A DNA stretch of 64,000 nucleotides from Beroe forskalii (lineage: Eukaryota; Ctenophora; Nuda; Beroida; Beroidae): NCBI GenBank assembly GCA_011033025.1, contig WFMF01000050.1:310001-374000 (forward strand), in the 5' to 3' direction. How positions within the stretch are numbered: position 1 is the stretch's first letter; the number at the start of each line of letters is the position of its first letter. Made by a program: the position numbers and the translations under genes. The notes under the pieces are model-generated. The model saw only the letters and a list, made by a program, of their open reading frames with translations, was not told the DNA's origin and did no database searches. This document shows, one piece after another, positions 5,996 through 56,371 of this stretch.

Positions 5996-6007
5996 ACAGA
6001 GATCTCT

Positions 6008-9000
6008 GTGCTGCAGATAGAGCTGCAAATTTTTTGCCAGACAGCAGAAAAGAGAGAGAATGAAGTCAGCAGAAACCAGCCCATAAATTCTCTAAAGCTC
6101 TTATATACAAATGCTGATGGGCTGTGCAATAAACTTGATGAGCTACGAATGATGATCAAACAAAAATGTGTTGAAATAATCTGTGTAACTGAATCTCATT
6201 TTCATGCTGATATCCTGGAAGCTGAGGTTCAACTGGAGGGCTTTACTCTCTATAGAAAAGACAGAGATTTCAAGATAAATGATGAAAGCTCAAAAGAAGT
6301 TAGTGGGAAAGGTGGATCAGTAATCTATGTCAAGAATGATTTACCACAAGAAAAAGATGAACTATTCTTGAATGCACCTGACTCTGTGGCTGTAAAGATT
6401 GGAACTGATAAAGGTACAGTTTGTATTGCTTGTGTCTATAGGTCTCAAGCACTGTCAGAGAATCAAAATCATCAACTGATTGAATGTATAAATAGTGTAT
6501 GCCATGAGTCTAATCCTTGTGAAACTATTGTTGTTGGGGACTTCAATCTTCCTGATGTGTGTTGGAACAATTCCATTAGCCTTCCAGCTGGTATGGATTC
6601 AAATAACAAACTTCTTGTGCAGCAAGCTCAATTTGTTAGTTGCTTTAATGATCTTGGACTGTCATGGGTGTTAACCTCTGAAATCACACGTAAAAGATTA
6701 GTGGGAGGAGTTCTTCAAGAAAGTTCACTTGATCAAATTTTAATGAACAATGAGGGATTGGTTAATGGACATAAAATCTTTTCTCCCCTTGGAAAATCAG
6801 TTATTGTGTCTGTATATAACAAGACCGATGACTTTAATTTCTCTGTAGTTTCCTTAACATTTCCACAGAGTAATATCCCTCTAGAAGTAGGCCATAATGT
6901 ATTCTATAGTCAAATCCTTAGGTATGCTAACATCTGTACTGAATTAGAAACTTTCCTCTTCAATCTTCAAAAAGTTTTCCAAAACTGATTGAAAGAGGAT
7001 ATAGTAACTCAATCTTGTAGACATTATTAAACGTTGCCTTAATAAGAATAGCTTAGTTTTTCAGAAATATGCAATTTTAGATAACAGTACAATTTTAGAT
7101 CAATTTGTTTAGGTATTGGTGCGCGAGGTTCTTCACATTCTGTACTGGATAGTTGTGCAGCTTGTTGCTGACCTTGAGCAACTTACTGTATGATTAGCCT
7201 GGGACTGAATGTGGGGCTGGACAGGCAGATGCCTGTAACCTCCCATTCATTTTAATAACTTTCACTTTCAGGTTTTAGATAGTAACATTAAGATGTTTCA
7301 CCCGTATTTAACACTCATTGATCTTTTGCCTCTACTGAACTCTTTCCTTTTCCTCCCCCTTCCCTCTAAACTGTGTTGCTCAGGAATCCGGAGTCCTGGG
7401 TGGCCCAGCCCTGCAGTTGTAAGCTGTGAGGGGTACGTGGGCAGAAACCCCTCCGTTTCCCTTTGTCACCTGCTGATGGGACACCGACATCGCAGATGGC
7501 AGGGAGACCTTACAACTGTAGGGTAACCACTGATGATTCACAGTTTAGTCTCTTCCGCCTCTTATGTCAATCCTTGAATTAGAAAATCGATGTACAGTAT
7601 TTTGTTATTTTTGTAGTATACTCATACACCTCTATAGATAAGACATTGGATCATTCTAGTATATTGGTTCATCTGGGAGTTTCAAGATGCAATGAACTCA
7701 AAAATGAGATTATCCAGAAGAAATCTTGGAGTAAGATTTCAGCTGAGGAAATCTTAGACTTCAGTGTTAAAAACATTGAATGGGAATATTCTTGTGATGA
7801 TCTAGATGTTGAGGATATGGTGAATGAGCTCAATTCAAAATTGCAAAAATTGAAGATAAAATACCAACTGATAGATTTTATGAAAACAATGTCCCAATAA
7901 AATCACCTTGGTCAAACTCAGCATTGAAAAGAAAACTGAAGCTTAAGAATGATGCCTGGACAAAGTTTGACAGCAATCCATCTTCAGAAGCTTTTAGTTA
8001 TGCTGTGTCTAGACAGCAATTATATGAAAATGAAAATTTAAGGTTGAAGCTCAACTATGAGAAAAAACTTGCTTATCATGTTAAGGACAATTCTAAGGCA
8101 TTTTATAGTTACCTGCGGAATAAACGTTTGCTCAAATCAAGTGTTCCAAATTTAGAGTGCCAAGATGGTTCATTGACTAATAATGCTACTGAGGCAGCAG
8201 AGGAATTAGCTGAAGCATTCAGTTCTGTATACACACAGGAACCTGCTGGACCCCTGCCAGAGATTGTAAAACACAATGGATGCAGAGACAATATCAATGA
8301 TATTAATGAGCCTGAAGAATTTCAGTTATCTAATATAACTATTTCATCTGAAGAAGTTGCTGCTGAACTTGCTAAATTGAATGTTTTTAAGAGTATGGGC
8401 CCAGATAGAGTACATCCAAAGCTTCTTAATGCACTGTCTGGTGACATGTTTTTGTTAATGCAATATGCAAACTTTTTCAGAAATGCATTGATACAGGCAC
8501 TTTGCCTGAAGTGTGGAAAACTGCAACTGTTGTGGCACTGTTTAAATCAGGATCTAAATCTCAGCCTTTGAACTATAGGCCAGTATCATTAACTTGTATC
8601 ATTTGTAAAGTGCTTGAGCAGATAATACGTAAACAAATTATTTCATTCTTAGAAAATAGAATCACTAAGCAGCAGCATGGGTTTGTTAATAACAGGTCTT
8701 GTCTGACAAATTTATTGGAAACATTCGACACTATAATTAATATTCTTGAAGAAGGAGAGGCTGTTGATGTTTTTTATTTAGATTTTCTCAAGGCCTTTGA
8801 TACAGTGCCTCATTATAGACTTTTGAGCAAGCTAGAAAATTTAGGTATAACAGGTAAACTTCTTGAGCTGTTGAGGAGTTTTCTGAGTGATAGAAGTATG
8901 AGAGTTTATGTGAATGGAAAGTACTCTTCAGTCAGGAAAGTTTTGTCAGGGGTACCACAAGGGTCAGTTTTAGGCCCTTTATTGTTCATTCTTTTTATCA

Positions 9001-10007
9001 ACGATTTGCCTGAAAATATAATTAATACTGTTAAATTGTTTGCTGATGATTTAAAATTGATTGGCAGGGCAAACAGTGCTAAGACAATTAATGATGATTT
9101 GAGACAATTAGAAAGATGGGAAAACTTATGGCTTTTGAACTTCAATGCATCCAAATGTAAAGTTATGCATTTAAACTACAATAATAATCCAATGAATAGT
9201 TATAGTTTGAATGGTGAAATTATGGAAATATCTCATCAGGAAAAAGATTTGGGAGTTCTCATCTCAGACTCCCTTCTTTGGAATGATGAGATAAACAAGT
9301 CTATTAGTAAAGCTAATCAAATGTTGAATTGGATAATTAGAAATTTTACTCTTCGAGAAAAGAATGTTATGCTTAAGATATACAAAGCTTTGATAAGACC
9401 ACATCTTGAATATGGAGTTCAGCTGTGGTGCCCATCTCCTGAGCATGGAAACTGGTCTCTGATTCTTGGACTTGAAGGTGTCCAGAGGCGTTTCACACGC
9501 CTCATTGATGGGATGGGCCACCTCCCTTACTCAGAGAGACTTGGGTGTCTACAGCTGACAACTCTTGCTGAGCGCCGTTTCCGTGGTGATCTTATTGAAA
9601 CTTTTAAGGCTTATAATGATATAAATGGGTTGAAGCACATTTTTAAGTTCAGTAGTCATAGAAGTAAGATTGTTTCCTGTTTGAAAACAAGCAATAATGT
9701 TTCTAATGGTGTCAAAAAGTTACATAGAAGGTTTCTAACAGAGAGAGTAAGAGAACTTTGGAACAAATTACCCTCATATGTCCGTTTGTCAGATTCAGTG
9801 ATCAAGTTTAAATGTAACCTAGAATTGTTTAAATCCATTTGTTTGAGTGAAGGCATTTCCTCTGAAGGGTATTATTGGAATGTTTCAAATGAGTTATTAT
9901 CTAAGATTGAAACTCCTGGGTATTTATTGAGTAGATCTAGACAGGTTGATTTTTTAAGAGAACATCCATTCATTGCAAAGAAGAAGTATTTCAACTTACG
10001 GTATTAG
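6008..10007 (+). pseudogene. LINE ORF2 (endonuclease-reverse transcriptase), broken
   Basis: The second ORF of a CR1/Jockey-group LINE, encoding an APE-type endonuclease and reverse transcriptase for target-primed insertion. Endonuclease motifs appear in order: LLYTNADGL, CVTESHF, VVGDFNLPDVCW, SLDQILMN and PLGKS. The last motif should read PLGKSDH; the DH and what follows resume only near 7649 (DHSSILVHLG), after an ~850-bp insertion. A frameshift follows near 7855 and another near 8485. From 8502 the RT is open for 501 codons: NYRPVSLT, QHGFVNNRS, YLDFLKAFDTV, SGVPQGSVLGPLLF, the catalytic FADD, and a C-terminal region with LGVLISDSL and LEYGVQLW. The element is dead, but its catalytic RT residues are intact. 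Confidence 0.85.
6801..7648. mobile_element. ~850-bp insertion inside the LINE endonuclease
   Basis: The LINE frame reads G-K-S up to 6800 and resumes as D-H-S-S at 7649, so the intervening DNA is an insertion. It has no recognisable coding domain. It contains a C-rich patch (about 7320-7500) and a short inverted pair, GCAGTTGTAAG near 7412 and CTTACAACTGTA near 7508. No clear terminal inverted repeat or long target duplication was found, so its class is undetermined. Confidence 0.6.
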
Positions 10008-11536: not shown

Positions 11537-11608
11537 ATGGCACAATCACTCCGTCAAGAATATGCAGCAAGATCTCAAACCAGCGATATATTCGGAGCAC
11601 AACAACAG
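11537..11608 (+). CDS. HN1/Jupiter-like gene, coding exon 1
   Basis: ATG to a GT donor (CAACAG/GTATTT), 24 codons, beginning MAQSLRQEYAARSQ and containing the SDIFG motif. It ends in phase 0. Confidence 0.7.
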
Positions 11609-14600
11609 GTATTTATTTGGGTGCATGTAATCAAGGATGTTTGTTTTCATGGTTTAGTTTGAATAGATATAATATTGGTCAAAAAATATGATGGTATGGT
11701 TCCCTTATCAACATTCTAACTTTAGGTATGGCTCTAGAGGTATGGCTCTTATTCAAGGTTCCAATCGAAAAATGTTGTTGGAATACGCATATGTGTGCAG
11801 ACTGCTCAATTGACAGAGGCCTCGATAAAGATGCGCAGATTTCCTCTGCATGCTTCAACTTTCTATAAAAATTCTGTCAAAAGCACACAATTTTTGCGTG
11901 TCTCTATCGAGCCCTTTTTCAATTGAGCGGTCTGCACACATATGAGTTATACTGTTTTATAAATATTTAGACTTCATTGTACCTCTTTCATGACGCAATT
12001 GAAGTTTAGTATAAAAAAGATCAAAACTCTGAATTTTGAATTAGAGATTTTGGATGAAATAGCACTGGCAGTATCATATTTCACAATTCATCTCCCAGCA
12101 GCCAGATATCCAGAAGCCTGGTAGACGTCTTGTTCAGGGACAAGGTGACAATGACATATTTGCTGACCGTGTCCACTCTGAGAGCAATGATAACCGCAAG
12201 AAGCCTGAGCCAGCCCCATTCCTGACTGAAACTAATGCTGTGAACACCCACGGTAGACGTGGAGGCTTTGTAGAGAAGTCTGACTCCATTGTTGAGGTTC
12301 GGGAGTAATTAGCTAATTAGTTTTTGTTGTTGCAGTATCTAAATTACAGTATTTCATCTAATAAATGGGTTCATCAAAATTCAAATCTTGCGTATTTTGT
12401 TCAATCATTTCAATTATAGTGAGTGATTCTAGCATCAGCCATTCAACTTTAAGTGATTACGTATTCTAAATACAATTGCCTTAATTTCCAGTCTGCTACC
12501 AATGGGAAGAAAGTTCACTATGAAGATGCTTATCCTGAACCAGTAGAAGAACAATTCACAGGTGAATATTTTATACTCCACGTGGATACTGTAATCAATG
12601 CTGATATGTTCTGATCTACACAGCTACCGATTTTACAGCATAATTACATGACTACCTTGTTAACTACAGTGCCATGATATCATGTGTGTAAAATGCATGT
12701 AGGATAACAAAAACAGTTTGATTTTGTTAAATTGGGTAAGCAAAAACCTAGCTATGGAATAAATGGACATTTTACTGTGTAATGTGTAGCCGTAAAGCTT
12801 AGGTTATAATATTAAGTCAAATAATATTAGGTCAAATTACTCCTTAATCATACTGAGTTTATTTAAATTACCTTTTGATTGTGGACTCCAATTGGATCGT
12901 CAAACCTTCAGTATGGGACATAATGAGCGTGTATGCAATATTATATGGCGGATGTCATTGCATTGTGTAGCTTATAACTTGGGATCTATGGAGTCTGATC
13001 TAATGCAACCTAAAACTTCTATCGAAAATTGTCTTTTGATGGACGGTGATTCTGCATTGAAAAGGAGCCTATTAGTTGTGAAACGTATAGCTGTAAGGCC
13101 TTTGCTATCCAAGAATTAAAATTTGGTGAAATAATTCCGAGAAATTGCAGTCTAATAAGCGATTAGAGTCAGTTATTAAAGTCAAGATACTTAGCTCTAC
13201 TACATTTGGGCGCATGAAGTGAGCAGACGTTTGCAAATTAAATCTTTTGTTGTCACAAAATTCACCATAACTCTATGTTGACACGCAGATTTCAGCTGAA
13301 TCTGATTGCATAATTCATATATATTTATGCCTGGCTCAGGTGGCTCGTATGTGGTTTTCCACTGCATGTAAAATATTACCTTGTGACTCAGCGGCTCTCC
13401 CTGCTGGAGAAAAGTTAGTCCATGTATTCGTCTCCATCCAATTATATATTGTGATGGAATCTAGTGGTCAGAGGTTGCCCAATCTAAAGATAAACCGTAG
13501 ATGAGTGCCTTTACTCCCTAATTCTGCACATTTATTAACCCTACTGCATTGGTCTGAAAGTGGGTAATATGTGGGAAGTGTCCGGTAGATTCATTAATAT
13601 AAATTGATAAAACGCCCTCCATTCTAGAATTAGAATTATAACTTTATACCTTGATTGTGTGTAATATGTGACGTCACTAAACACAGTTCACTATTTAATG
13701 TGTGAGGGTAGCCCAGTGTACTCATAAAACGCTCGAGCAATGAGCAAAGAGCAATGACAAAACACATCACACATCCTCAATGATGTGAGCATAATTCTTT
13801 AATCATTATATCTCAGTATCCCGACATTTGGATAATTCAGATAAATCAATGGGGTAGTTAATAAGCCCCTCTTCGTTAATAATATCTACCCGGAATCTCT
13901 TAACATATCCTTATTAATTCCTTCTCTAATTATTGTTAGGTAAATTATACAGTTCCATTCACGTAACTCAGTCAGCGGTACTCCTCCTGAATGTCTTGAA
14001 GGACTCAACTTCCTCTTCCCCCATGATACTGAGTAGAGTTACTCATCTACTGTATGACTTGCAGTTGTATTATGAAATTGTTTGAAATTGAAGTCCCCAA
14101 CTCTGGGCAAAGCCCTGGGGGTTGAATTTCTGTATTCCGTAACCATAGCCAGTGAAATGTATACTGCAAACACAATGTACAATGTACGAAGTGAATTATC
14201 TCTACCCGGCCCTACACAAACTTCAGTTCCCTGAAAGCCTGAATTTTGCAAATTAGCATATTATTAAACATATTTTGGCGGTCACCTGTTTTCTGATTAT
14301 TGATTATTCCCTTCTCAGTATAAGCCTCAGTGCCCGGTAACCCGTGCTATCATTAGCAAACGTAGATTACATGCGCATATTAACAGATTTAAGACCGGAA
14401 TAAAATGTACAATTCACATTTAACTCGTGTAGGATTGGATAGTTCCTACCTCTGAGGGAGCCCATCGGATTTTTAGATTCGTGTGTCAGTGTCTAGTGTC
14501 TACTGTCGGCATAAGTCAAAAATATACCGCACACTCAAAAATATACTGTATTCAAAAATATACCGCACTGAGATATTTAAACGATTCTAAAAGTAGAATC

Positions 14601-17600
14601 GGCAGAAATTGGTGGTTTTGGACTGAGCCATATTGTATGCATAAACTATAGTCTGTTCTACATAAAATATGAAATTTTGAACTAAACCTTTCACTGCTTA
14701 AAGTCTTATTTTCCTCAATTATTTGAGTCCATTGAGAATGGCTCAATTACTCAATTATATTTTGAGCCATTCTCTCATAACGTGTTGAGCATACAGGAGG
14801 GATTGAGACCATTTTCTTTGTCATGTATTTGTACACATGCGTAGCTATGACCAATCGCTGTATTTTCTATTGTTATACGTGTACGTAATGGCATGCATGG
14901 TCGCTTATTAGCTTATTGAATGTACCGATTCATGTTTGTGTCCGCTGTTGTCAAGTAGTATGTTGTTATACACACGGGAGGGATTAGCCAATCACATGAC
15001 GGCGTGCTGATCACGAGATCAAGGATGAGTATCAACTGTTGAGAAGGTGTGTTTGTGTGTCTGATAAATGCACTGCTCTCATGACACAGGAGCTGTTGAG
15101 CTGAGAGCCACATAACTAGCAAAATGCACCGAACTGAGCGCGAAGCGCGAGGCATAATAACACATTGAGACCGAGGCCGAAGGCCGAGGTTTAATGGAAG
15201 GTTTGCAGTTTTGCGAGTTCTAAACCGAATTATGCAACGACAATACATGAAGGTATATATTGAGTAATTATGTATAATTCAAGCAAGAATATGAGAATAT
15301 GTAGTGTTATTGGCGTGTCTAGTATTTGAGCTTTATTGTAAAAAAGTGCAGCTACTGTATCCTTCAGTGTGAAATCTGCGGTCACAACTCCTAGTGTTCA
15401 TTTCTAACACCTCTCCTCCTAGTAAGGGTCACAGCTTGTTTGTTGCCACAATGCCAAAATGGTTTTATTATCAACTGGTTCCACTTTTTTGGCACTGTAG
15501 TTGTACACTTTTTAAAAAGTGTAACTGTTTTAGCGTGCATAATGGGTATAAAGGAGCACTGCGTAAACCTCCTTAGAAGCTAGACATGAGAGGTTTTTGT
15601 AACTAGCAAAAATTGCAACCGCGATATTAGCCGCACCGAGCGCGAAGCGCGAGGGCATAATAACACATTGAGACCGAGGCCGAAGGCCGAGGTTTTAATG
15701 GAAGGTTTGCAGTTTTTGCGAGTTACAAAACCGAATTATGCAACGACAATACATGAAGGTATATATTGAGTAATTGTGTATAATTCAAAGCAAGAATATG
15801 AGAATATGTAGTGTTATTGGCGTGTCTAGTATTTGAGCTATTGTAAAAGTGCAGCTACTGTATCCTTCAGTGTGAAATCTATGGTCTGTCACCCTAGTGT
15901 TCATTTCTAACACCTCTCCTCCTATAGTAAGGTCACGTTTTGAAAAACACCAGAGTACAATGCCAAAATGGTTTTATTATCAACTGTAGTTCCACTTTTT
16001 TGGCACTGTAGTTGCACTTTTTAAAAAGTGTAACTGTTTTAGCGTGCATAATGGGTATAAAGGAGCACTGCGTAAACCTCCTTAGAAGTTGCATAATTGT
16101 TCTTATTGAACACCATTCAAACTGCCTAAAGCTCTAAAAATACCAGTGTGCTAGAGCCTCAGCTCCACTAAGTCACTCTGTAACTAAAAACTTTATCATT
16201 GAAAATTACTCATTGTTACCATGTACAACTCACTGTTACCATGTACAACTCACTGTTACCATGTACAACTTACTGTTACCATGTACAACTTACTGTTACC
16301 ATGTACAACTCACTGTTACCATGTACAACTCACTGTTACCATGTAAAACTCACTGTTGCCATGTACAATTCACTGTTACCATGTACACTCACTGTTACCA
16401 TGTAAAACTTACTGTTACCATGTACAACTTACTGTTACCATGTAAAACTCACTGTTGTCATGTACAACTCACTGTTACCATGTACAACTCACTGTTACCA
16501 TGCACTACTTACTGTTACCATGTACAACTCACTGTTACCATGTACAACTCACTGTTACCATGCACAACTCACTGTTACCATGCACAACTCACTGTTACCA
16601 TGTACAACTCACTGTTACCATGTACAACTCACTGTTACCATGTACAACTCACTGTTACCATGTACAACTCACTGTTACCATGTACAACTCACTGTTACCA
16701 TGCACAACTCACTGTTACCATGTACAACTCACTGTTACCATGCACAACTCACTGTTACCATCTACAACTCACTGTTGCCATGTAAAACTTACTGTTACCA
16801 TGCACAACTCTCTGTTGCCATGTACAACTATTGTTACCATATACAACTTACTGTTACTATGTACAACTCACTTTTACCATGCACAACTCACTGTTACCAT
16901 GCACAACTTACTGTTACCATGTAAAACTCACTGTTACTATGTACAACTTACTGTTACCATGCACAACTCACTGTTACCATGTACAACTCACTGTTACCAT
17001 GTACAACTTACTGTTATCATGTACAACTTACTGTTACCATGTACAACTTACTGTTACCATGCACAACTCACTGTTACCATGTACAAACTCACTGTTACCA
17101 TGTACAACAACTCACTGTTACCATGTACAACTCACTGTTACCATGTACAACTCACTGTTACCATGTACAACTCAACTTGTTACCATGTATGTACACTGTC
17201 ACTGTTACCATGTACAACTCACTGTTACCATGTACAACTCACTGTTACCATGTACAACTCACTGTTACCATGTACAACTCACTGTTACCATGTACAACTC
17301 ACTGTTACCATGTACAACTTACTGTTACCATGTACAACTAACTGTTACCATGTACAACTTACTGTTACCATGTACAACTCACTGTTACCATGTACAAATT
17401 ACTGTTACCATTTACAACTCACTGTTACCATGTACAACTCACTGTTACCATGTACAACTCACTGTTACCATGTACAACTCACTGTTACCATGTACAACTC
17501 ACTGTTACCATGTTCAACTCACTGTTACCATCCACCACATTCACTTTGTAATTTGTATAGCATGAAATGTCGCTCACAGTACAATTTTCGGCCTGTGGAG

Positions 17601-19749
17601 ACACTTCTGCACCTATACATTGAACAACTCGACGGACAGTATAGGAATTATAGAATATGTCGGGGCGCGGTAACAGGTGGAAAAGATGAAATGCGACCCA
17701 ATTGAATTGAATCCTAATTCAATAAGAAAATGTTTCGACCTATCACAGATCATATAACCATGTTAGCCATAAACCAGTTTCACTCCTTAGTCTTTCACAG
17801 CTGCATAACGGTCTGTAAGTAATTAAGTAGCCAGAATGCTAGCCACTGACCCACAATATTTTCACAAGAGTCATGCAGCTTTAATTTTAAAGTTTTAAAT
17901 CTGGATTCTGGTAACCATATACTAGGTATACCAGTTCAAGACCCTGGTATTGGGCCCTATAAGTCACAGGACACTTGGTACATTTAATGCCGGCCACACA
18001 ATACTGTCGGATAACGTCTAGCACCAAGACTGAAATACTCTTCCTTCACTCCATTTCACACCCACTACAGTCCCTCTAACACCCGTCTGTTTTTCAGATA
18101 ACGATGAAGGAAACACTACAGTCCCTCTAACACCCGTCTGTTTTTCAGATAACGATGAAGGAAACACTACAGTCTCTCTAACACCCGTCTTTTTTTCAGA
18201 TAACGATGAAGGAAACACTACACACTCACTACAGTCCCTCTAACACCCGTCTGTTTTTCAGATAACGATGACGGAAACACTACAGTCTCTCTAACACCCG
18301 TCTTTTTTTCAGATAACGATGAAGGAAACACTACACACTCACTACAGTCCCTCTAACACCTGTCTGTTTTCAGATAACGATGACGGAAACACTACAGTCC
18401 CTCTAACACCCGTCTGTTTTTCAGATAACGATGACAGAAACACTACAGTCCCTCTAACACCCGTCTGTTTTTTCAGATAACGATGACAGAAACACTACAG
18501 TCCCTCTAACACCCGTCTGTTTTTTCAGATAACGATGACAGAAACACTACAGTCCCTCTAACACCTGTCTGTTTTTTCAGATAACGATGAAGGAAACACT
18601 ACAGTCCCTCTAACACCTGTCTGTTTTTTCAGATAACGATGAAGGAAACACTACAGTCCCTCTAACACCTGTCTGTTTTTTCAGATAACGATGAAGGAAA
18701 CACTACAGTCCCTCTAACACCTGTCTGTTTTTTCAGATAACGATGACGGAAACACTACACTCTCTCTAACACCCGTCTGTTTTTCAGATAACGATGACGG
18801 AAACACTACAGTCCCTCTAACACCCGTCTGTTTTTCAGATAACGATGACGGAAACACTACAGTCCCTCTAACACCCGTCTGTTTTTTCAGATAACGATGA
18901 CGGAAACACTACAGTCCTCTAACACCCGTCTGTTTTTTCAGATAACGATGACAGAAACACTACAGTCCCTCTAACACCCGTCTGTTTTTTCAGATAACGA
19001 TGACAGAAACACTACAGTCTCTCTAACACCCGTCTGTTTTTTCAGATAACGATGACGGAAACACTACACTCTCTCTCTAACACCCGTCTGTTTTTCAGAT
19101 AACGATGAAGGAAACACTACACTCTCTCTCTAACACCCGTCTGTTTTCAGATAACGATGACGGAAACACTACACACTCTCTCTCTAACACCCGTCTGTTT
19201 TTTCAGATAACGATGACGGAAACACTACAGTCCCTCTAACACCCGTCTGTTTTTCAGATAACGATGACGGAAACACTACAGTCCCTCTAACACCCGTCTG
19301 TTTTTTCAGATAACGATGACGGAAACACTACACTCTCTCTCTAACACCCGTCTGTTTTTCAGATAACGATGACGGAAACACTACACTCTCTCTCTCTAAC
19401 ACCCATCTGTTTTTTCAGATAACGATGACGGAAACACTACAGTCCCTCTAACACCCGTCTGTTTTTTCAGATAACGATGACGGAAACACTACACTCTCTC
19501 TCTAACACCCGTCTGCTTTTCAGATAACGATGACGGAAACACTACACTCTCTCTCTAACACCCGTCTGTTTTTCAGATAACGATGACCCGAGGTACAGGT
19601 TCGACGAGGACAAGTTCAACGAGAACTCGACGACCGCCAAGAACCACAAAGCGAGGAACATGACCAGTCACATATTCGATGCTGCTGGCACCCCTGAGGT
19701 GGACGACAAGCCGGCCTACAACCGAGACAACATGTCTAACATCTTCTAG
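11537..19749 (+). CDS. HN1/Jupiter-like small protein, four coding exons
   Basis: A spliced gene of 170 codons plus stop: exons 11537-11608, 12099-12296, 12492-12561 and 19577-19749, total 513 nt with consistent phases (0, 0, 1). The product is hydrophilic and probably disordered, and repeats a short hydrophobic motif: TSDIFGAQ, DNDIFADR, TSHIFDAAGTPE and a terminal NMSNIF. The same spacing of SDIFG/ASNIF motifs characterises the Jupiter/HN1 (JPT) microtubule-associated family, so a cytoskeleton-associated role is suggested by resemblance, not proven. The ATG has a purine at -3 and lies just after a good acceptor. The last intron (7 kb) carries a 20-bp satellite and a tandem array of 3' splice sites. 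Exon reading is strong; family assignment is tentative. Confidence 0.6.
11788..11944. mobile_element. MITE-like element in intron 1
   Basis: Terminal inverted repeats of about 26 bp (CATATGTGTGCAGACTGCTC at the left, GAGCGGTCTGCACACATATG at the right) enclose ~100 bp without coding capacity. No clear target duplication was found. Confidence 0.6.
12099..12296 (+). CDS. HN1/Jupiter-like gene, coding exon 2
   Basis: 66 codons, phase 0 to phase 0, with the motif DNDIFADR and a basic HGRRGGF patch. The acceptor is a tandem NAGNAG (CCCAGCAG), so one glutamine may be included or skipped. The donor GAG/GTTCGG is weak. Reading on past it meets a stop four codons later, so retention would give a truncated protein. 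Confidence 0.7.
12492..12561 (+). CDS. HN1/Jupiter-like gene, coding exon 3
   Basis: 70 nt, from acceptor TTTCCAG to donor ACAG/GTGAAT, encoding SATNGKKVHYEDAYPEPVEE and QFT and leaving one base for the split codon completed by exon 4. Confidence 0.7.
12562..16198. other. First half of intron 3
   Basis: No coding exon was recognised between exon 3 and the 20-bp satellite. The main structure is a ~480-bp direct duplication (15114-16088), given separately. Short frames here have no recognisable motif. Confidence 0.45.
15114..16088. repeat. Direct tandem duplication of a ~480-bp unit
   Basis: Two copies, 15114-15578 and 15601-16088, begin near ACTAGCAAAA, carry the self-complementary patches GAGCGCGAAGCGCGAGG and CCGAGGCCGAAGGCCGAGG, and end with GCGTAAACCTCCTTAGAAG. 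They differ by small indels and homopolymer length. No open frame is shared, so this is probably a non-autonomous repeat duplicated in tandem. Confidence 0.75.
16199..17535. repeat. 20-bp satellite in intron 3
   Basis: About 66 copies of the 20-mer CTCACTGTTACCATGTACAA, with variants ACTTACTG, TGCACAAC and TGTAAAAC and a few short indels (for example 17090-17200). Long open frames here are by-products of stop-free 20-mers read in three phases (period 60 bp); they are not genes. Confidence 0.95.
17536..18050. other. Intron 3 spacer between two tandem arrays
   Basis: Single-copy-looking sequence between the 20-bp satellite and the splice-site array. No motif or repeat is recognised. Confidence 0.4.
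18052..19576 (+). repeat. Tandem array of ~28 copies of the exon-4 3' splice site
   Basis: The 51-60-bp unit contains a branch-point-like CTCTAAC, a pyrimidine tract (CCCGTCTGTTTTTCAG), the AG and then ATAACGATGA, the first bases of the real exon 4. About 28 copies precede the genuine junction at 19576/19577. Unit lengths differ mainly in the number of T residues (four to seven) and in CT expansions (ACACTCTCTCTCTAAC in place of ACAGTCCCTCTAAC). A 51-bp unit is open in the exon frame (DNDDGNTTVPLTPVCFS). The final unit carries an in-frame TAA, and 52-bp units shift frame. Confidence 0.9.
19577..19749 (+). CDS. HN1/Jupiter-like gene, coding exon 4 (C-terminus)
   Basis: Begins at the last of the tandem acceptors and completes the split codon (G + AT = Asp). 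It encodes DNDDPRYRFDEDKF, then the motif MTSHIFDAAGTPE, and ends NMSNIF-stop (TAG 19747-19749). The sequence after the first 12 bases departs from the repeat unit, which marks this as the parental exon. Confidence 0.75.
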
Positions 19750-19904: not shown

Positions 19905-20073
19905 GCTCAGATGCTGAGCACTGTTCAGATGCTGAGCCCTGCTCAGATGCTGAGCACTGCTCAGATGCTGAGCACTGTTCAGATGCTGAGCACTGCTCAG
20001 ATGCTGAGCACTGCTCAGATGCTGAGCACTGCTCAGATGCTGAGCACTGCTCAGATGCTGAGCCCTGCTCAGA
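19905..20073. repeat. 18-bp minisatellite just 3' of the gene
   Basis: Nine or ten copies of CAGATGCTGAGCACTGCT with minor variants, starting about 155 bp after the stop codon and so perhaps in the 3' UTR. The unit is a multiple of three, giving apparent open frames on both strands, which are not taken as genes. Confidence 0.85.
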
Positions 20074-20273
20074 TGGTGGATAGACAGTGAATGTGTGACA
20101 TTGTGTGCCAACGAATTCCTCATGCACTCACCTGAGTGCTTCGTGTTGTAATATACCAACAACTTAAAGGACAAATTAACTATTTGTTTTGAGTTATTAA
20201 TTACTTAATTGTTACACCAACATCAATAATACAATACTGTTTGTATCGCACAGTAATTTTCTCAAAATTAGTA

Positions 20274-39057: not shown

Positions 39058-40340
39058 GCACAATCCCACTTGTGCAAACCGCCGATTCGGCGCCTATAGG
39101 CGCCTATAAGTTTTTTTCGGCGCCGATTCGGCGCCTATAGGCGGTACCGCTTTTAGGCGCCTATAGGCGCCTATAATTGACATTTTCCAATTTTTCGGCG
39201 GTCATCGGCGCCTATAGGCGCCGATAAGCGCCGATAAGCGCCTATGGACCGCCTATCGGCGCTGTCGGCGCTTTTCGACCGCTTATCGGCGCCTATTTTT
39301 TCAACCGTCTATAGGCGCCTATAGGCGCCTATAGGCGCCGATACTGTTTCTTCGTCCGATTTTGCGCCGATTTTGCCTTCTAGCAATCTGTGCTCTTCCG
39401 CTTTTTTTTCGGCGCCTATAGGCGCCTATAGGCGCCGATGAATTAAAAGTAAAACAGTCCTAAATTGGCGTGCGCTTTCGTTTCACGGTATGTCAGGTTA
39501 GGTTTGGGGTTAGGATTAAGGTTTGGGTTGGGGTTAGGGTTAGGGTTAGGGTTTGGGTTAGGGTTTGGGTTAGGGTTAGGGTCTGGGTTTGGGTTTGGGT
39601 TAGGGTTTGGGTTAGGGTTTGGGTTAGGGTTTGGGTTAGGGTTTGGGTTAGGGTTTGGGTTAGGGCTTGGGTTAGGGTTTGGTTAGGGTTTGGGTTAGGG
39701 TTTGGGTTAGGGTTTGGGTTAGGGTTTGGGTTAGGGTTTGGGTTAGGGTTTGGGTTAGGGTTTGGGTTATGGTTTGGGTTAGGGATTGAGTTAACCCTGA
39801 CCCTAACCCCAACCCTAACCCTAACCCTAACCCTAACCCTAACCCAACCCTAACCCCAAGTTTAGCCCTAATCCTGACCCAACGATGTTGCGGGCCAATT
39901 TAGGACTACTTTAATTCATCGGCGCCTATAGGCGCCTATAGGCGCCTGTAGGCGCCTGTAGGCGCCTATAGAATTTAGGCCAATGAATATAGGTCATAGA
40001 CTCGGAGCTCAGCTAATAAAACTCATCCTCGCCAGTTCATGACTGTCTTAATTCATCGAAAAACGAGGAATAACATAGATTGCTAGAAATCAATATCGGC
40101 GCCTATAGGCGCCTATAGGCGCCGAAATATAGGCGCCGATAAGCGGTCGAAAAGCGCCGACGGCGCCGATAGGCGGTCCATAGGCGCTTATCGGCGCTTA
40201 TCGGCGCCTATAGGCGCCGATGACCGCCGAAAAAATGAAAAATGTCAGTTATAGGCGCCTATATAGGCGCCGAATCGGCGCCGAAAAAACTTATAGGCGC
40301 CTATAGGCGCCGAATCGGCGGTTTGCAAGTGGTAATGTGC
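39058..40340. mobile_element. Palindromic GGCGCCTATA element, copy 1
   Basis: Runs from GCACAATCCCACTTGTGC to its inverse CAAGTGGTAATGTGC. The arms consist almost wholly of the decamer GGCGCCTATA and variants (GGCGCCGATA, AGCGCCGATA, GGCGGT), themselves palindromic. The core (about 39490-39880) is telomere-like: TTAGGGTTTGGG on the plus strand, then CCCTAACCCTAA after about 39795. No coding capacity was recognised. Confidence 0.8.
39490..39880. repeat. Inverted interstitial telomere-like repeats, copy 1 core
   Basis: A ~300-bp run of TTAGGG/TTTGGG (mostly a 12-bp TTAGGGTTTGGG) switches at about 39795 to CCCTAA. Glycine/valine-rich frames here are artefacts. Confidence 0.85.
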
Positions 40341-41629
40341 ACATTCCCACTAGTGCGAACCGCCGATTCGGCGCCGATCAGCGCCGAATCGGCGCCTATA
40401 GGCGCCTATAGGCTTTTTTCGGCGCCGATTCGGCGCCTATAGGCGGTACTGCTTTTAGGCGCCTATAGGCGCCTATAATTGACATTTTCCAATTTTTCGG
40501 CGGTCATCGGCGCCTATAGGCGCCGATAAGCGCCGATAAGCGCCTATGCACCGCCTATCGGCGCCGTCGGCGCTTTTCGACCGCTTATCGGCGCCTACGT
40601 TTTCAACCGCCTATAGGCGCCTATAGGCGCCGATGCTGTTTTCATCTTACGTATCGGCGCCTATAGGCGCCGATATTCTTCCTCTTTTTTCGATGAATTA
40701 AGACAGTCCTGAAGGAGCGAGGATGAGTTTTATTAGCTGAGCTCCGAGTCAATGACCTACATTCATTGGCCTAAATTCTGTAGGCGCCTATAGGCGCCGA
40801 TGAATTAAAGTGGTCCTAAATTGGCCCGCAACATCGTTGCACGGTATGTCTTCCACATTTGGGTCAGGATTAGGGCTAGGCTTGGGGTTGTTAGGGCTAG
40901 GGTTGGGTTAGGGTTAGGGTTAGGGTTAGAGTTAGGGTTAGGGTTAGGGTTAGGGTTGGGGTTAGGTTAGGTTAGGTTAGGGTTACAACAAACCCTAACC
41001 CAAACCCCTAACCCAAACCCTAACCCAAACCCTAACCCAAACCCTAACCCAAACCCTAACCCAAACCTTAACCCAAACCCTAACCCAAACCCTAACTCAA
41101 ACCATAACCCAAACCCTAACCCAAACCCTAACCCAAACCCTAACCCTAACTCCAAACCCTTACCTGACGAAAGCGCACGCCAATTTAGGACTGTTTTAAT
41201 TCATCGGCGCCTATAGGCGCCTATAGGCGCCGAAAAAAGGTGGAAGAACACAGATTGCTAGAAGGCAAAATCGGCGCCTATAGGCGCCGATACTTAGGAC
41301 ATCGCCGGGGACGAAGAAACAGTATCGGCGCCTATAGGCGCCTATAGGCGGTTGAAAACTAAGGCGCCGATAAGCGGTCGAAAAGCGCCGACGGCGCCGA
41401 TAGGCGGTGCATAGGCACTTATCGGCGCTTATCGGCGCCTATAGGCGCCGATGACCGCCGAAAAATTGGAAAATGTCAATTATAGGCGCCTATAGGCGCC
41501 TAAAAGCAGTACCGCCTATAGGCGCCGAATCGGCGCCGAAAAAAACTTATAGGCGCCTATAGGCGCCTATAGGCGCCGATTCGGCGCTGATCGGCGCCGA
41601 ATCGGCGGTTCGCACTAGTGGGAATGTGC
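40339..41629. mobile_element. Palindromic GGCGCCTATA element, copy 2 (inverted)
   Basis: Runs from GCACATTCCCACTAGTGCG to its exact 23-bp inverse. Its unique islands (GAGGATGAGTTTTATTAGCT, TAAATTGGCCCGCAACATCG, GAAAGCGCACGCCAATTTAG) are the reverse complement of those in copy 1, so this is the same element in opposite orientation. The core (40850-41165) is TTAGGG-like, then CCCTAA-like. The two copies share the GTGCAC centre at 40337-40342. Confidence 0.8.
40850..41165. repeat. Inverted interstitial telomere-like repeats, copy 2 core
   Basis: A ~130-bp TTAGGG-type run switches at about 40987 to an ~170-bp CCCTAACCCAAA run, the mirror image of copy 1. Confidence 0.85.
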
Positions 41630-52246: not shown

Positions 52247-53945
52247 TTATAACTTCAAAAGACATCGGGAAATTGTAGGGCAAATTTGCCATACAGCCGT
52301 CGACTCTATATAACGTTCAGTCCACTTCGTGTTAAGAAGCCACCTAAAGTCTCTGAATCTAGGTGACCCAGAGTGTGGTCTAGTGAGCTTACCAACGGAG
52401 CTCACTAGTCCTCTCACCACCAGCCGCTGCACATCAAAACACAAATGAATTCCGTTACCCTTCCTGTCCCATACAATATTAGGCTGTTCATGAATAATCA
52501 TAGCATGGGAGTCGTAAAACTAAGATTGGTTACATGTTTTGAAAGATTGTACATGTAGTCATTAAATAAATCTATCTCATGGTTAAGCCATGCTCGATTT
52601 TTTGGCATGAGTAATGGTGTTAAAACAAAGTTTTTGTATCAGGATTGTTTTTACAGCACGACTTCAGTTTATTGTAAATCAAGTCCATGAGAGAATTCGC
52701 AGTTTTCCCATACCTGCTCAAATCATTCACACCACAAGAGAAAATAACAGTACTGCATGCCTAAACTCGGTCTCATGATCAAAAACATCGCAAAGCTGAT
52801 AGCATTCCCTCTTCACGCATGTCACGCCGGGAATCTGTTCAAAAAACTGTCTCGGGGTCTGCTTCAGTATTGAGTCAGTAAGAAAAAGTACTCTTGTTGA
52901 TCTACGAGGGATGTGGAAAGAGGGGCGATTCACGGGAGGAATAGGGGAGGTAGGCGGGGCAGGAGGGGTCGTGTCCAACAGCTTTCTGAACGTCAGGGAG
53001 ATGCGTGGCTCACGGACTGAGGTGTCCCTGTCGATGCCATGACGCCAGTTGTCTTGGCTAGCTCTCGTCATGGCATAGACAGAGCAGTTCTCCAGGGGAA
53101 TGCAGTGTTCTGTGAGGGGACCAACAGTGTTGTACACCTTAAGTACTCTCTTGGCACCGAAAGAAACAGTAAAAATGGTGCTGAGGGGATCAATGGAAAT
53201 TTCATCGTCATGGTGGAGGGGTATTGACACGTTACCGTCCTCGTACAACGTGCAGAGGCACGTGTACTCGTCCTTGTTTACCCCAAGTACACTCAACTGA
53301 TCGAGAATCTTATCGAAGACTGGCAGGTCAGGATAGGGTTTGGGTTGGTGGGTTACTCTGCCGTATTTGTAGGCCAATGTACCGTAGTAGGCTGTCGTAC
53401 GTCCGCCAGGATGACTTTGATTGAAGTTGATAGCCTGTTTGACTTCGTCGAATGTGATGTCACGGACTGTCACGGGACAAACTCTTACCGGACATGTTGA
53501 GTCTCTGTTAACCGTCATATCTGTGTCGGGTAGCTGAGAGGCGTAGGGCGAGTCTCGGAGGGAACAGGTGCGGAGTCTCTGCTGGCGAGTGTCTTGTCTG
53601 CTTCCTCTGCACTCTTGCACAGCTTGTTTGCTGCCTGGTTGCAGTGTCGATAACGCTCGTCAGATTGACAACACTAACAGTCCGCTCCTTGAGCTCGTTC
53701 ACTGCCACCGTAGCTGACTCGAGGGTGGAAGTCAATTTAGTGGTTAGATCTTGTATGTTACACAAAGCATTGTTAAACTTGAGAGGAGCTCGATTGAGAG
53801 AGGCCTTCAGAACATCTCTCTTACCATCGATATCAGTAACTCCATGCTCACTGAGCGAAGGGTCAATACTAAGGAGGTGGGAGTACTCATACTCAACTTG
53901 TGCGTCACTTAGTAGATGTAGGATCTCCAGACAAGTAGTTGATGA
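52247..53945 (-). pseudogene. AlkB-type dioxygenase / SGNH hydrolase fusion, broken copy
   Basis: The central frame (53620-52727) carries an AlkB-like 2OG-Fe(II) dioxygenase core: LYEDGNVSIPLHHDDE (iron ligands HxD), NWRHGI (second His) and RISLTFRKL (2OG-binding Arg). Then come a Pro-rich linker and the start of an SGNH hydrolase (VLFLTDSIL). The hydrolase continues in other frames: SCGVNDLSRYG at about 52740, and DRKGNGIHL (catalytic Asp/His block) near 52440. There are thus at least three frameshifts (about 52745, 52630 and 52503). An N-terminal part (53945-53640: LLSDAQVEYEYSHLLSID, LTTKLTSTLESATVAVNELK) is also out of frame. The 5' end is cut by 39-bp satellite. AlkB enzymes demethylate nucleic acids; any substrate here is unknown. 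Paralogue of the intact copy at 54680-56191. Confidence 0.75.
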
Positions 53946-54679: not shown

Positions 54680-56191
54680 TTAATGCCCATTTAAAAATGG
54701 TCGATATCCACAGGGTTCTGCCTGATGCCAACTTATGTGAACTTCTTTCATCAGTTTCTTACCACGCTCATTCATGTGCAACCCATCTCTAACATATAAA
54801 TCTAAATTAATGAAGCCATTAGGCTGCAGATACTGGTAAAAGACATTGACCAACTTTACCCTCTTAAAAGAAATTTCTAAATCGAACAGAAAATTATTGA
54901 AGGACTTAATTCTAACTAGGTGATTGAACCTGTGGCAAATTCTTGGGGGTACATTGAAGATCATGATGCGTGCATTAGGAAACAATTTTAAAAGCTCGTT
55001 AATAAGTTTATTATATTCGTTCATGATCTTCAGCTGCGATAAGTTTAAGTCACTGAGGTCATTGGTACCTACGCATACCGTCACCGACTTGATTCGCGCA
55101 TACTCTGAGACTGGTAGCTCGTCCCGGTTGTCCTGGAGCATCGGGATGATGTCTGGTATCTCTCCACCTCCTCTGGTGATGGTGAGGCAGTTGGCGATGT
55201 TGATGCCGCGAGTCAGGGAATCCCCAATGATCAGGTGCTCGGGGACCTCTGACATCGAAACCACCTGGCTCCTGCCATTAGTCCTGGAGAAGGCAGGGAC
55301 GATGGCCCGTCTGGTCACTGGTAGGGGTAGCCTACTAGGGTCTGCTTGGCTGTCACCTTGCGGGGCTGGTGTGGCAATAGGTGGCTCCTGCTGCTGCTCG
55401 CCACTGACCGGGGTTTCCTCTGGGTCAGATGCCGCAAGCCTCCTGAAGGAAAGACACCACCTGGTAGCCCCCGCTGAACCTGTGTCATTTCTAGACACCC
55501 CATGTCTCAGATTACTCTGGCACCCAGGAGACATGACCAGCAACGATCTGTGCTTCAGCTCCTGTGTGATGATCGGAGCACTGCAAGTGAGATCGTAGAA
55601 ATCTATGGATCTCGAAGCACCCAGCGAAACATTGCAGATTGGGTGCTGCTGATCAATGACCCTTTCATTGTCCTGGTGCGGTTTGACCTGAGCACCTCCT
55701 CCCTGATAGCAGGACACAAGGCAACAGTCCAGGCTAGTGTCCATGGTCCTGTTTAGTGTCCTCATCAGCATATCTATCTGAGGGTAGGAGTTGATGGGGG
55801 AGGCTTGATGTTGGGTGCCCCCGAACTTATAGGGCTGATCTGACCTGGCTAGCCACTTGTAGCCCAGCTGCCCATTGTCACAGCCAACAAAGAGACCCCT
55901 CACTTCATCGAGCAGTTGTTCTTCGAGGTCCCCACTAATCCAGTCCAGGCTCTCTGCAAACTGGACGAAGTCATGCAGCTGTCTCATCTGAGGGGGTGAC
56001 ACGTCCTGGCACGGTAGTTCCTCAGACTCAGACTCAGTGATCTGACCGTCTGAAATGTCCTCCTCATCAGACGCAGGGTTGGAAAGATGCTCGACCCTGT
56101 CTTCCATGACCTTAATCAATTTGATGAGCAAATCGATGTCTTGAGTCTCCTTAATTAAGTTTTTGTAAGTTTCTAGGTTTGTAACTTCCAT
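54680..56191 (-). CDS. AlkB-type dioxygenase fused to SGNH hydrolase, intact
   Basis: A single 503-codon frame. After an acidic N-terminus (SDEEDISDGQITESESEE), residues ~95-255 form an AlkB-like 2OG-Fe(II) dioxygenase: YKFGGTQHQ, CLVSCYQGGGAQVKPHQDNE (H172, D174), LRHGVS (H230) and RWCLSFRR (R244, R250). A Pro/Gln linker leads to an SGNH hydrolase (~318-485): HLIIGDSLTRG (Ser325), VCVGTNDLSDL (block III) and VRDGLHMNERG (D469, H472). Both active sites look complete. By family, the first domain oxidises alkylated bases or other substrates with 2-oxoglutarate and iron, and the second is an esterase/acyl hydrolase. The combined role is unknown. It has a probable 5' UTR exon junction at 56370. 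It could be a host gene or an accessory ORF of a mobile element; the degraded paralogue next door favours the latter. Confidence 0.8.
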   Translation of the reverse strand: MEVTNLETYKNLIKETQDIDLLIKLIKVMEDRVEHLSNPASDEEDISDGQITESESEELPCQDVSPPQMRQLHDFVQFAESLDWISGDLEEQLLDEVRGLFVGCDNGQLGYKWLARSDQPYKFGGTQHQASPINSYPQIDMLMRTLNRTMDTSLDCCLVSCYQGGGAQVKPHQDNERVIDQQHPICNVSLGASRSIDFYDLTCSAPIITQELKHRSLLVMSPGCQSNLRHGVSRNDTGSAGATRWCLSFRRLAASDPEETPVSGEQQQEPPIATPAPQGDSQADPSRLPLPVTRRAIVPAFSRTNGRSQVVSMSEVPEHLIIGDSLTRGINIANCLTITRGGGEIPDIIPMLQDNRDELPVSEYARIKSVTVCVGTNDLSDLNLSQLKIMNEYNKLINELLKLFPNARIMIFNVPPRICHRFNHLVRIKSFNNFLFDLEISFKRVKLVNVFYQYLQPNGFINLDLYVRDGLHMNERGKKLMKEVHISWHQAEPCGYRPFLNGH

Positions 56192-56371
56192 GATTGATGT
56201 TGACGGGGTGAGTCCGGATTGGGATGCACCAGGGGGCAGTCAGAGGGATGGGTCTCATGGGGCGCAGGGATGTGCACATCAGAGGGATGGACGAGATTAG
56301 CAGAGGGAGCCGCCTCCCAGGCAGTCAGCACACAGCGGCAGCGTGCGGGGTGTAGCCACCAGCAGTCACCT
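56192..56371 (-). other. 5' UTR exon part of the intact AlkB-SGNH gene
   Basis: A minus-strand acceptor (TTCTTTTCCTGACAG) at about 56371 precedes ~180 nt of leader before the ATG at 56191. An upstream non-coding exon is therefore likely; it was not found. Confidence 0.5.

What the first reader, a model, noticed from the sequence alone, without database searches (positions are those of the whole stretch)
18052..19576. An intron carries ~28 tandem copies of its own 3' splice site
Each 51-60-bp unit contains a branch-point-like CTAAC, a polypyrimidine tract, CAG, and the first ~12 bases of the real exon. The array ends exactly at the genuine exon 4 acceptor. It appears to have grown from the exon boundary itself. 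Using an upstream copy would give either a 17-residue repeat peptide (51-bp units) or a premature stop (the last unit reads TAA in the exon frame). This could be a splice-site buffer, a source of 5'-extended exons, or a transcript-length clock varying between individuals.
Basis: partly seen in the sequence, partly recalled or inferred. Interest (0 to 1): 0.92.

Follow-up and report, generated by a model that had tools for sequence, protein, structure and literature searches.

The report
Splice-site arrays in a comb jelly
An intron in a comb-jelly gene ends in 28 extra tandem copies of its own splice acceptor, and similar arrays turned up beside more than a dozen other apparent exons of the same genome, so this looks like repeat growth at exon edges that splicing probably ignores, which would make the animal a natural test of how splice sites are chosen.

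Summary
Window 18063-19587 has 29 acceptor modules (CTAAC, pyrimidines, CAG|ATAACGATGA); the last is the exon acceptor, so 28 are extra; units are 51-62 bp and carry 10-11 bp of exon head. The exon is real: two homologues run through the junction, and only acceptor 29 keeps the frame; all 28 others meet a stop. COX1 of the assembly is identical to that of the ctenophore Beroe forskalii. The structure matches amphioxus 'mirages', minisatellites spanning intron-exon boundaries (PMC3087553, passages). It is not alone here: of the 14 multi-hit TTTCAG arrays listed, 7 end at an apparent exon start; of the 9 multi-hit AGGTAAG arrays listed, 6 begin at an apparent exon end, three with Pfam support. 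Most likely: minisatellites seeded at splice junctions and tolerated because the exon-proximal site is used; which site is used was not observed, since no RNA data were available. Regulatory roles (buffer, clock, extended exons) have no support here. Tandem repeats in general are not shown to crowd exon acceptors (6 of 32 against 18 of 160 windows, p 0.25).

The parts
11537..11608 (+). first coding exon (MAQSLRQEYAARSQTSDIFGAQQQ), donor GTATTT
   Evidence: homologues P0002/P0003 begin with the same 21 residues
12099..12296 (+). second coding exon; start 12099 or 12102 (CAGCAG), end at GAG|GTTCGG inferred; if not spliced it reads into a stop at 12306-12308, with AATAAA near 12360
   Evidence: continuous in homologues
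12492..12561 (+). third coding exon (SATNGKKVHYEDAYPEPVEEQFT + G), phase 1 donor GTGAATATT
12562..19576 (+). intron that carries the array
   Evidence: phases at both ends agree; homologues read across
16208..17531 (+). unrelated 20-bp minisatellite x65.8 in the same intron, no acceptor module
18063..19587 (+). tandem array of 29 acceptor modules; the last 11 bp lie in the exon
19574..19576 (+). CAG of the genuine acceptor (number 29), the only one that keeps the frame
19577..19749 (+). last coding exon, stop codon at 19747-19749

Best explanation
A 'mirage': a minisatellite born from a tandem duplication that spanned an intron-exon boundary and grew by unequal exchange or replication slippage. 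The copies carry a complete acceptor, but the mature mRNA stays normal because the acceptor next to the full exon is used; each upstream copy is followed by only 10-11 bases of exon before the next unit begins. Shown: the array, its acceptor modules, the exon-derived heads, the frame argument for this gene, and similar arrays at other apparent exon boundaries. Inferred: use of acceptor 29, the growth mechanism, and near-neutrality.
For: 29 of 29 modules complete. Scored with a matrix from 32 kinase acceptors the copies (5.1-10.7) lie in the normal range (0.8-16.1, median 7.8) and the real site (9.3) is not the strongest, so strength alone does not single it out. Only acceptor 29 preserves the conserved C-terminus. 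Same structure elsewhere: tetraspanin gene in L015 (19 CAGs upstream of the exon-2 acceptor, 15 of them followed by a 6-9 of 9 match to the exon head, two by 9 of 9; a 66-bp x4 donor array after the same exon; gene model PF00335 7.3e-39); 7 of 14 multi-hit TTTCAG arrays end at an apparent exon, among them a PDZ exon (PF00595 1.5e-7) with the first 16 bases of the exon copied; 6 of 9 multi-hit AGGTAAG arrays begin at an apparent exon end with exon tail copied, three with Pfam support: citrate synthase, lamin tail, WWE. Genome counts: TTTCAG triples 6302 against 1087 for the reversed pattern, AGGTAAG triples 1567 against 509. Published mirages: Adh3 data and globin RT-PCR suggest regular splicing (PMC3087553, passages).
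Against: No RNA evidence for this species. The classical proximity rule (Reed and Maniatis as told in PMC9225289, passages) favours the upstream of two competing acceptors, the opposite of what is needed. In a kinase survey tandem repeats as such were not enriched in the last 60 nt of introns: 6 of 32 against 18 of 160 control windows, p 0.25; background 484 of 1992 windows. Many arrays with splice-like words are not at exons that I could see: 6 of 14 and 2 of 9 in the inspected sets (1 more unclear in each), and 15 of 16 donor-like clusters in a 248-kb scan. The matrix is not very selective: 16 of 236 other AGs of the same intron reach the lowest array score. Copy number could be affected by assembly. 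That the exon-proximal copy joins the exon body is geometry, not evidence of use; the frame was tested copy by copy only in the window gene.
Confidence: 0.77

Rival explanations
1. Regulated alternative acceptor: upstream copies are used in some tissues and swap the 57-residue C-terminus for short repeat tails, a protein-truncating switch in the last exon.
For: All 29 sites look usable; every upstream site gives a short alternative tail of 10-52 residues; the array is at the last coding exon, so classical exon-junction NMD may not remove such mRNA (inference).
Against: 28 near-identical sites are not needed for a switch; the tails are arbitrary and differ between sites; arrays of this kind occur at unrelated genes, where, for example, the 46-bp steps at the citrate synthase exon would shift the frame (inference).
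Confidence: 0.1
2. Selected buffer or decoy: the array protects against loss of the acceptor or slows splicing by sequestering U2AF.
For: Branch point and AG invariant in all modules.
Against: The units are so alike (mean pairwise 87%) that invariance of 8 bases proves no selection; loss of acceptor 29 would not be rescued, since all others give stops.
Confidence: 0.06
3. Assembly artefact: tandem copies added by mis-assembly of noisy long reads.
For: No reads could be inspected.
Against: 18 distinct units among 28, and arrays with different units at many loci on different contigs.
Confidence: 0.04
4. The reverse origin: a satellite supplied the acceptor and the first codons of the exon.
For: The array end coincides with the exon start to within 11 bp.
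Against: Homologues have D-N-x-D or D-N-x-N at the same codons; a search of the assembly with the array found only this place (a search that skips very common words).
Confidence: 0.03

Closest known systems
Mirage minisatellites of amphioxus (Adh3, globins BflGb6 and BflGb9, troponin C; imperfect ones in PGBD5)
   Same: Tandem duplications that span an intron-exon boundary, at acceptor or donor side, with splice signals in many copies; unit lengths 10-72 bp in Adh3 (PMC3087553 and PMC3902484, passages).
   Different: Other phylum (Ctenophora); 28 extra acceptors here, and at C2:82001-83585 33 listed triple hits over 1.6 kb, about 40 units by length, against 3 and 6 units in the two haplotypes of BflGb6; found here beside many apparent exons of one genome. 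The Adh3 paper itself was not held.
Human IFI6 (6-16) minisatellite that supplies several splice donors
   Same: A minisatellite across an exon boundary whose repeats act as splice sites (PMC4526556, passages; the original, Turri 1995, not held).
   Different: Donor side; there two downstream repeat units are reported as used, giving three mRNAs, whereas here upstream use would truncate the protein.
NAGNAG and other tandem acceptors (recalled)
   Same: Several AGs compete for one donor.
   Different: Those are a few nt apart and share one branch point; here each copy has its own branch point and pyrimidine tract.
Recursive splice sites (recalled)
   Same: Acceptor-like sites inside a long intron.
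   Different: A recursive site needs AG followed by a donor GT; here it is AG|ATAACG in 29 of 29.

Membership tests
Mirage minisatellite (amphioxus type) | tandem repeat unit contains an intron-exon boundary | tested here: met
   CAG|ATAACGATGA in 29 of 29
Mirage minisatellite (amphioxus type) | array adjoins the genuine boundary of a coding gene | tested here: met
   array ends 11 bp inside the last coding exon
Mirage minisatellite (amphioxus type) | regular splicing despite the copies | not testable with these tools
   no RNA reads of this species; only the frame argument
Mirage minisatellite (amphioxus type) | length instability between haplotypes or in the soma | not testable with these tools
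   one place only found in the assembly
Recursive splice site | AG|GT at the junction | tested here: not met
   AG|AT in 29 of 29
Coding tandem-repeat exon | units keep the reading frame | tested here: not met
   20 of 28 units not divisible by three; stops from every upstream acceptor

The most novel reading that the evidence does not exclude
Tandem amplification in this ctenophore is targeted to splice junctions: hundreds of exons carry arrays of their own acceptor or donor, made by a process coupled to splicing or transcription, and the spliceosome follows an exon-proximal rule that hides them. Pointing that way: TTTCAG is 2.2 times as common as its reversed control in 100 kb (105 against 48) but its tandem triples are 5.8 times as common, and 7 of 14 and 6 of 9 inspected arrays lie at apparent exons. 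Pointing the other way: kinase acceptors show no general repeat enrichment, arrays of period 15 or more cover 17% of a 120-kb sample anyway, and no control was made for how often any array edge lies beside an open frame. 'Many genes, both sides of exons' is fairly well supported; the targeting is not yet.
Probability: 0.22. Interest if true: 0.9.

Novelty: new member of a known kind. Interest (0 to 1): 0.74.

Why it matters
Identical splice sites in competition are normally built a few at a time in minigenes. Here an animal genome seems to offer them at many genes, on both sides of exons, from 2 to about 40 copies. RNA reads alone would show whether the intron-proximal or the exon-proximal site wins, how leakage grows with copy number, and whether such arrays give rise to new exons or introns, as proposed for the amphioxus mirages (PMC3087553). 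It would also move mirages from a lancelet oddity to a process seen in one of the earliest-branching animal lineages.

Tried and rejected
Pfam, PDB and the first protein search gave no family or homologue for the last exon, and Pfam none for the joined gene (two sub-threshold matches). A link to the Jupiter family was a guess from memory and its genome search (PF17054) did not complete. RNA structure of a piece of the array is unremarkable (z -0.01). The idea that tandem repeats in general crowd the ends of introns came from the first 13 kinase acceptors (5 of 13) and was given up after 32. In a formal scan of those 32 for an upstream copy of intron end plus exon head, 1 of 32 own and 2 of 992 cross comparisons passed; L038 was added because 20 exon-head bases recur exactly. 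L016 4823-5290 (43-bp unit with TTTTAG and GTAAGT) is not at a recognised exon and was dropped. L011 ends at an ORF with a GTAAGT donor but without copied exon head and without a Pfam match; kept only as possible. L014 is not at an exon that I could see. Of the 14 acceptor-type arrays L089 is uncertain and L090, L093, L095, L096, L099, L100 are not at exons that I could see; eight single-hit places in the same listing were not read. Of the 9 donor-type arrays L101 is unclear, L107 and L109 are not; one single-hit place was not read. Listings show only the first places of each search. Literature searches listed, as relevant, the two amphioxus papers, IFI6 papers, two Beroe papers and one on splice-site competition.

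Full report
What is there. The window is part of a 216-Mb assembly (contig C581, 310001-374000). Its contig C1134 of 13,339 bases carries a COX1 that is 100% identical over the whole query to the protein named for Beroe forskalii, so this is a ctenophore. At 18063-19587 lies an array with 29 modules: CTAAC, 13-15 bases of which 10-12 are pyrimidines, CAG, then ATAACGATGA. The last module is the acceptor of the last coding exon, 19577-19749. Unit lengths are 51-62 bp and 18 of 28 units are distinct.

The gene. Exons at 11537-11608, about 12099-12296, 12492-12561 and 19577-19749 were each found once in the assembly. Two proteins of 167 and 169 residues, whose longest contigs are about 1 kb and so probably stem from transcripts, share 67 and 65% identity with the 104-residue query of exons 1, 3 and 4 and align along the 170-residue model of all four exons. 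At the junction they read DNCD and DNCN where this gene reads DNDD: the codons copied into the array are old coding sequence. That gives the direction: the array came from the exon boundary. The donor of the second exon (GAG|GTTCGG) is weak and inferred; unspliced, that exon ends in a stop followed by AATAAA, so an early polyadenylated form is possible.

Consequences of using a copy. Splicing of 12561 to each acceptor was translated in turn: 28 of 28 upstream acceptors meet a stop after 10-52 residues, only acceptor 29 gives the 57-residue tail that the homologues keep. A position matrix built from 32 kinase acceptors of the same genome, themselves picked partly for their pyrimidines, scores the copies at 5.1-10.7, the kinase sites at 0.8-16.1 with median 7.8, and the genuine site at 9.3; 16 of 236 other AGs of the intron reach 5.1 too. 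So the copies are of ordinary strength and the real one is not the best; something other than site strength must decide.

Not alone. In 20 further stretches of the genome (184 kb) a tetraspanin gene (PF00335 7.3e-39) has the same structure before exon 2: 19 CAGs upstream of the acceptor at L015 3873, 15 of them followed by a 6-9 of 9 match to the exon head, and after the same exon four copies of 66 bp that repeat its end with the donor. To sample exons without looking for repeats, 60 pieces next to protein-kinase matches were read. Of 40 acceptor pieces 32 gave a usable site; two, from paralogous genes (L038, L066), have one upstream copy that includes exon head, 20 nt exact in L038. Of 20 donor pieces 14 gave a usable site; two (L078, L084) have copies of exon tail plus donor downstream, against 2 of 182 cross-comparisons between loci; the donor positions of these two were set by eye. 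In a scan of 248 kb for clusters, ten acceptor-like clusters (three of them parts of the window array) and sixteen donor-like clusters appeared; beyond the window and the tetraspanin gene only L011 may be at an exon.

Genome-wide. Three TTTCAG hexamers 15-45 bases apart occur 6302 times, the reversed pattern 1087 times; the single hexamer is 2.2 times as common as its reverse in 100 kb. The 14 arrays with at least two listed hits, on C1 and C2, were read at their downstream edge: 7 end at an apparent exon (L087, L088, L091, L092, L094, L097, L098). In five of them (L087, L091, L092, L094, L097) a copy matches 19-23 of the first 24 exon bases; in L088 and L098 only a few bases beyond the AG recur. 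Of the six exon translations put to Pfam (L089 among them, L087 and L092 not) only L094 matched above its cut-off, a PDZ exon (PF00595 1.5e-7); the others rest on open frames and splice consensus. For donors, AGGTAAG triples occur 1567 times against 509; of the nine multi-hit arrays listed six begin at an apparent exon end (L102-L106, L108) with exon tail copied (18-24 of the last 24 exon bases per copy): citrate synthase in L105 (PF00285 5.2e-7), lamin tail in L103 (PF00932 2.8e-8), a WWE-containing exon in L104 (PF02825 2.6e-16); L102 and L108 had no Pfam match, and L106, which resembles a cathepsin by eye, was too short to test. The two donor-side kinase exons matched PF00069 at 1.1e-7 and, below the cut-off, 0.00027. 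From the five exon-linked arrays on C1 (2.5 Mb) one would extrapolate some 400 TTTCAG-type arrays in the genome (140-1000 by Poisson); this is a rough figure from one contig.

How splicing could cope. The copy that joins the body of the exon is, by geometry, the last of an acceptor array and the first of a donor array. That the protein needs that copy was shown copy by copy only for the window gene; at the tetraspanin donor array the 66-bp unit is in frame, so later donors would lengthen rather than truncate. Use of the exon-proximal copy fits exon definition: in five minigenes with two identical donors under exon definition the upstream, exon-proximal donor was used exclusively, although the older intron-centred rule predicts the opposite (PMC9225289, passages). 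Whether this holds with 29 competing acceptors is unknown and is what RNA reads would tell.

Known or new. Amphioxus 'mirages' are the same kind of thing: minisatellite-like duplications spanning intron-exon boundaries, on both sides, with splice signals in many copies, length differences between haplotypes and, by RT-PCR, apparently regular splicing (PMC3087553, passages; PMC3902484, passages). The human IFI6 minisatellite is a donor-side case (PMC4526556, passages). No report in ctenophores came up in the searches named under Tried and rejected; in the Beroe ovata genome paper the words intron, splice and tandem repeat do not occur in the main text (word counts). The array is therefore a new member of a known kind; its number of copies, the phylum and the spread over many genes are new as far as these searches reach.

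Limits. No RNA, no reads, no second individual. Most exon calls rest on open frames. No control was made for how often the edge of any array lies beside an open frame. Tandem repeats cover much of this genome (17% of a 120-kb sample for periods of 15 or more), and kinase acceptors as a class show no significant excess of repeats (6 of 32 against 18 of 160), so a targeted mechanism is not shown.

Noticed in passing
window 19905-20075 +: 18-bp unit GCTCAGATGCTGAGCACT x9.5 downstream of the stop codon, probably in the 3' UTR; 19905-20040 folds into a long, very stable hairpin (z -5.59).
   Followed up: partly
window 12099-12308 +: The second coding exon can be read through its weak donor to a stop with AATAAA downstream: a possible early-terminated short isoform.
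   Followed up: no
window 54680-56239 - and 52727-53659 -: Long ORFs that by eye look like an AlkB-type oxygenase domain, in the first with a hydrolase-like part, possibly of mobile elements; no family search made.
   Followed up: no
window 5996-10007 +: LINE-like element: endonuclease (PF14529) and reverse transcriptase (PF00078) matches.
   Followed up: no
window 30564-63702, seven places: A 39-bp satellite (AACAATAGAAATATTAGCATATAGCCCAGGGCAAGGAAA) in both orientations; one array gives a very likely spurious Rfam match to HIV_GSL3.
   Followed up: no
window 39496-39856 and 40861-41159: Telomere-like repeat blocks, twice a G-rich block followed by a C-rich one.
   Followed up: no
L016 4823-5290: 43-bp unit x10.8 that holds both TTTTAG and CGACCGT|GTAAGT, i.e. 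an acceptor, a possible 7-nt mini-exon and a donor, but not at a recognised exon.
   Followed up: partly
L015 3988-4253: The 66-bp donor array of the tetraspanin gene is in frame (open frame through it): using a later donor would add copies of the third membrane helix.
   Followed up: no
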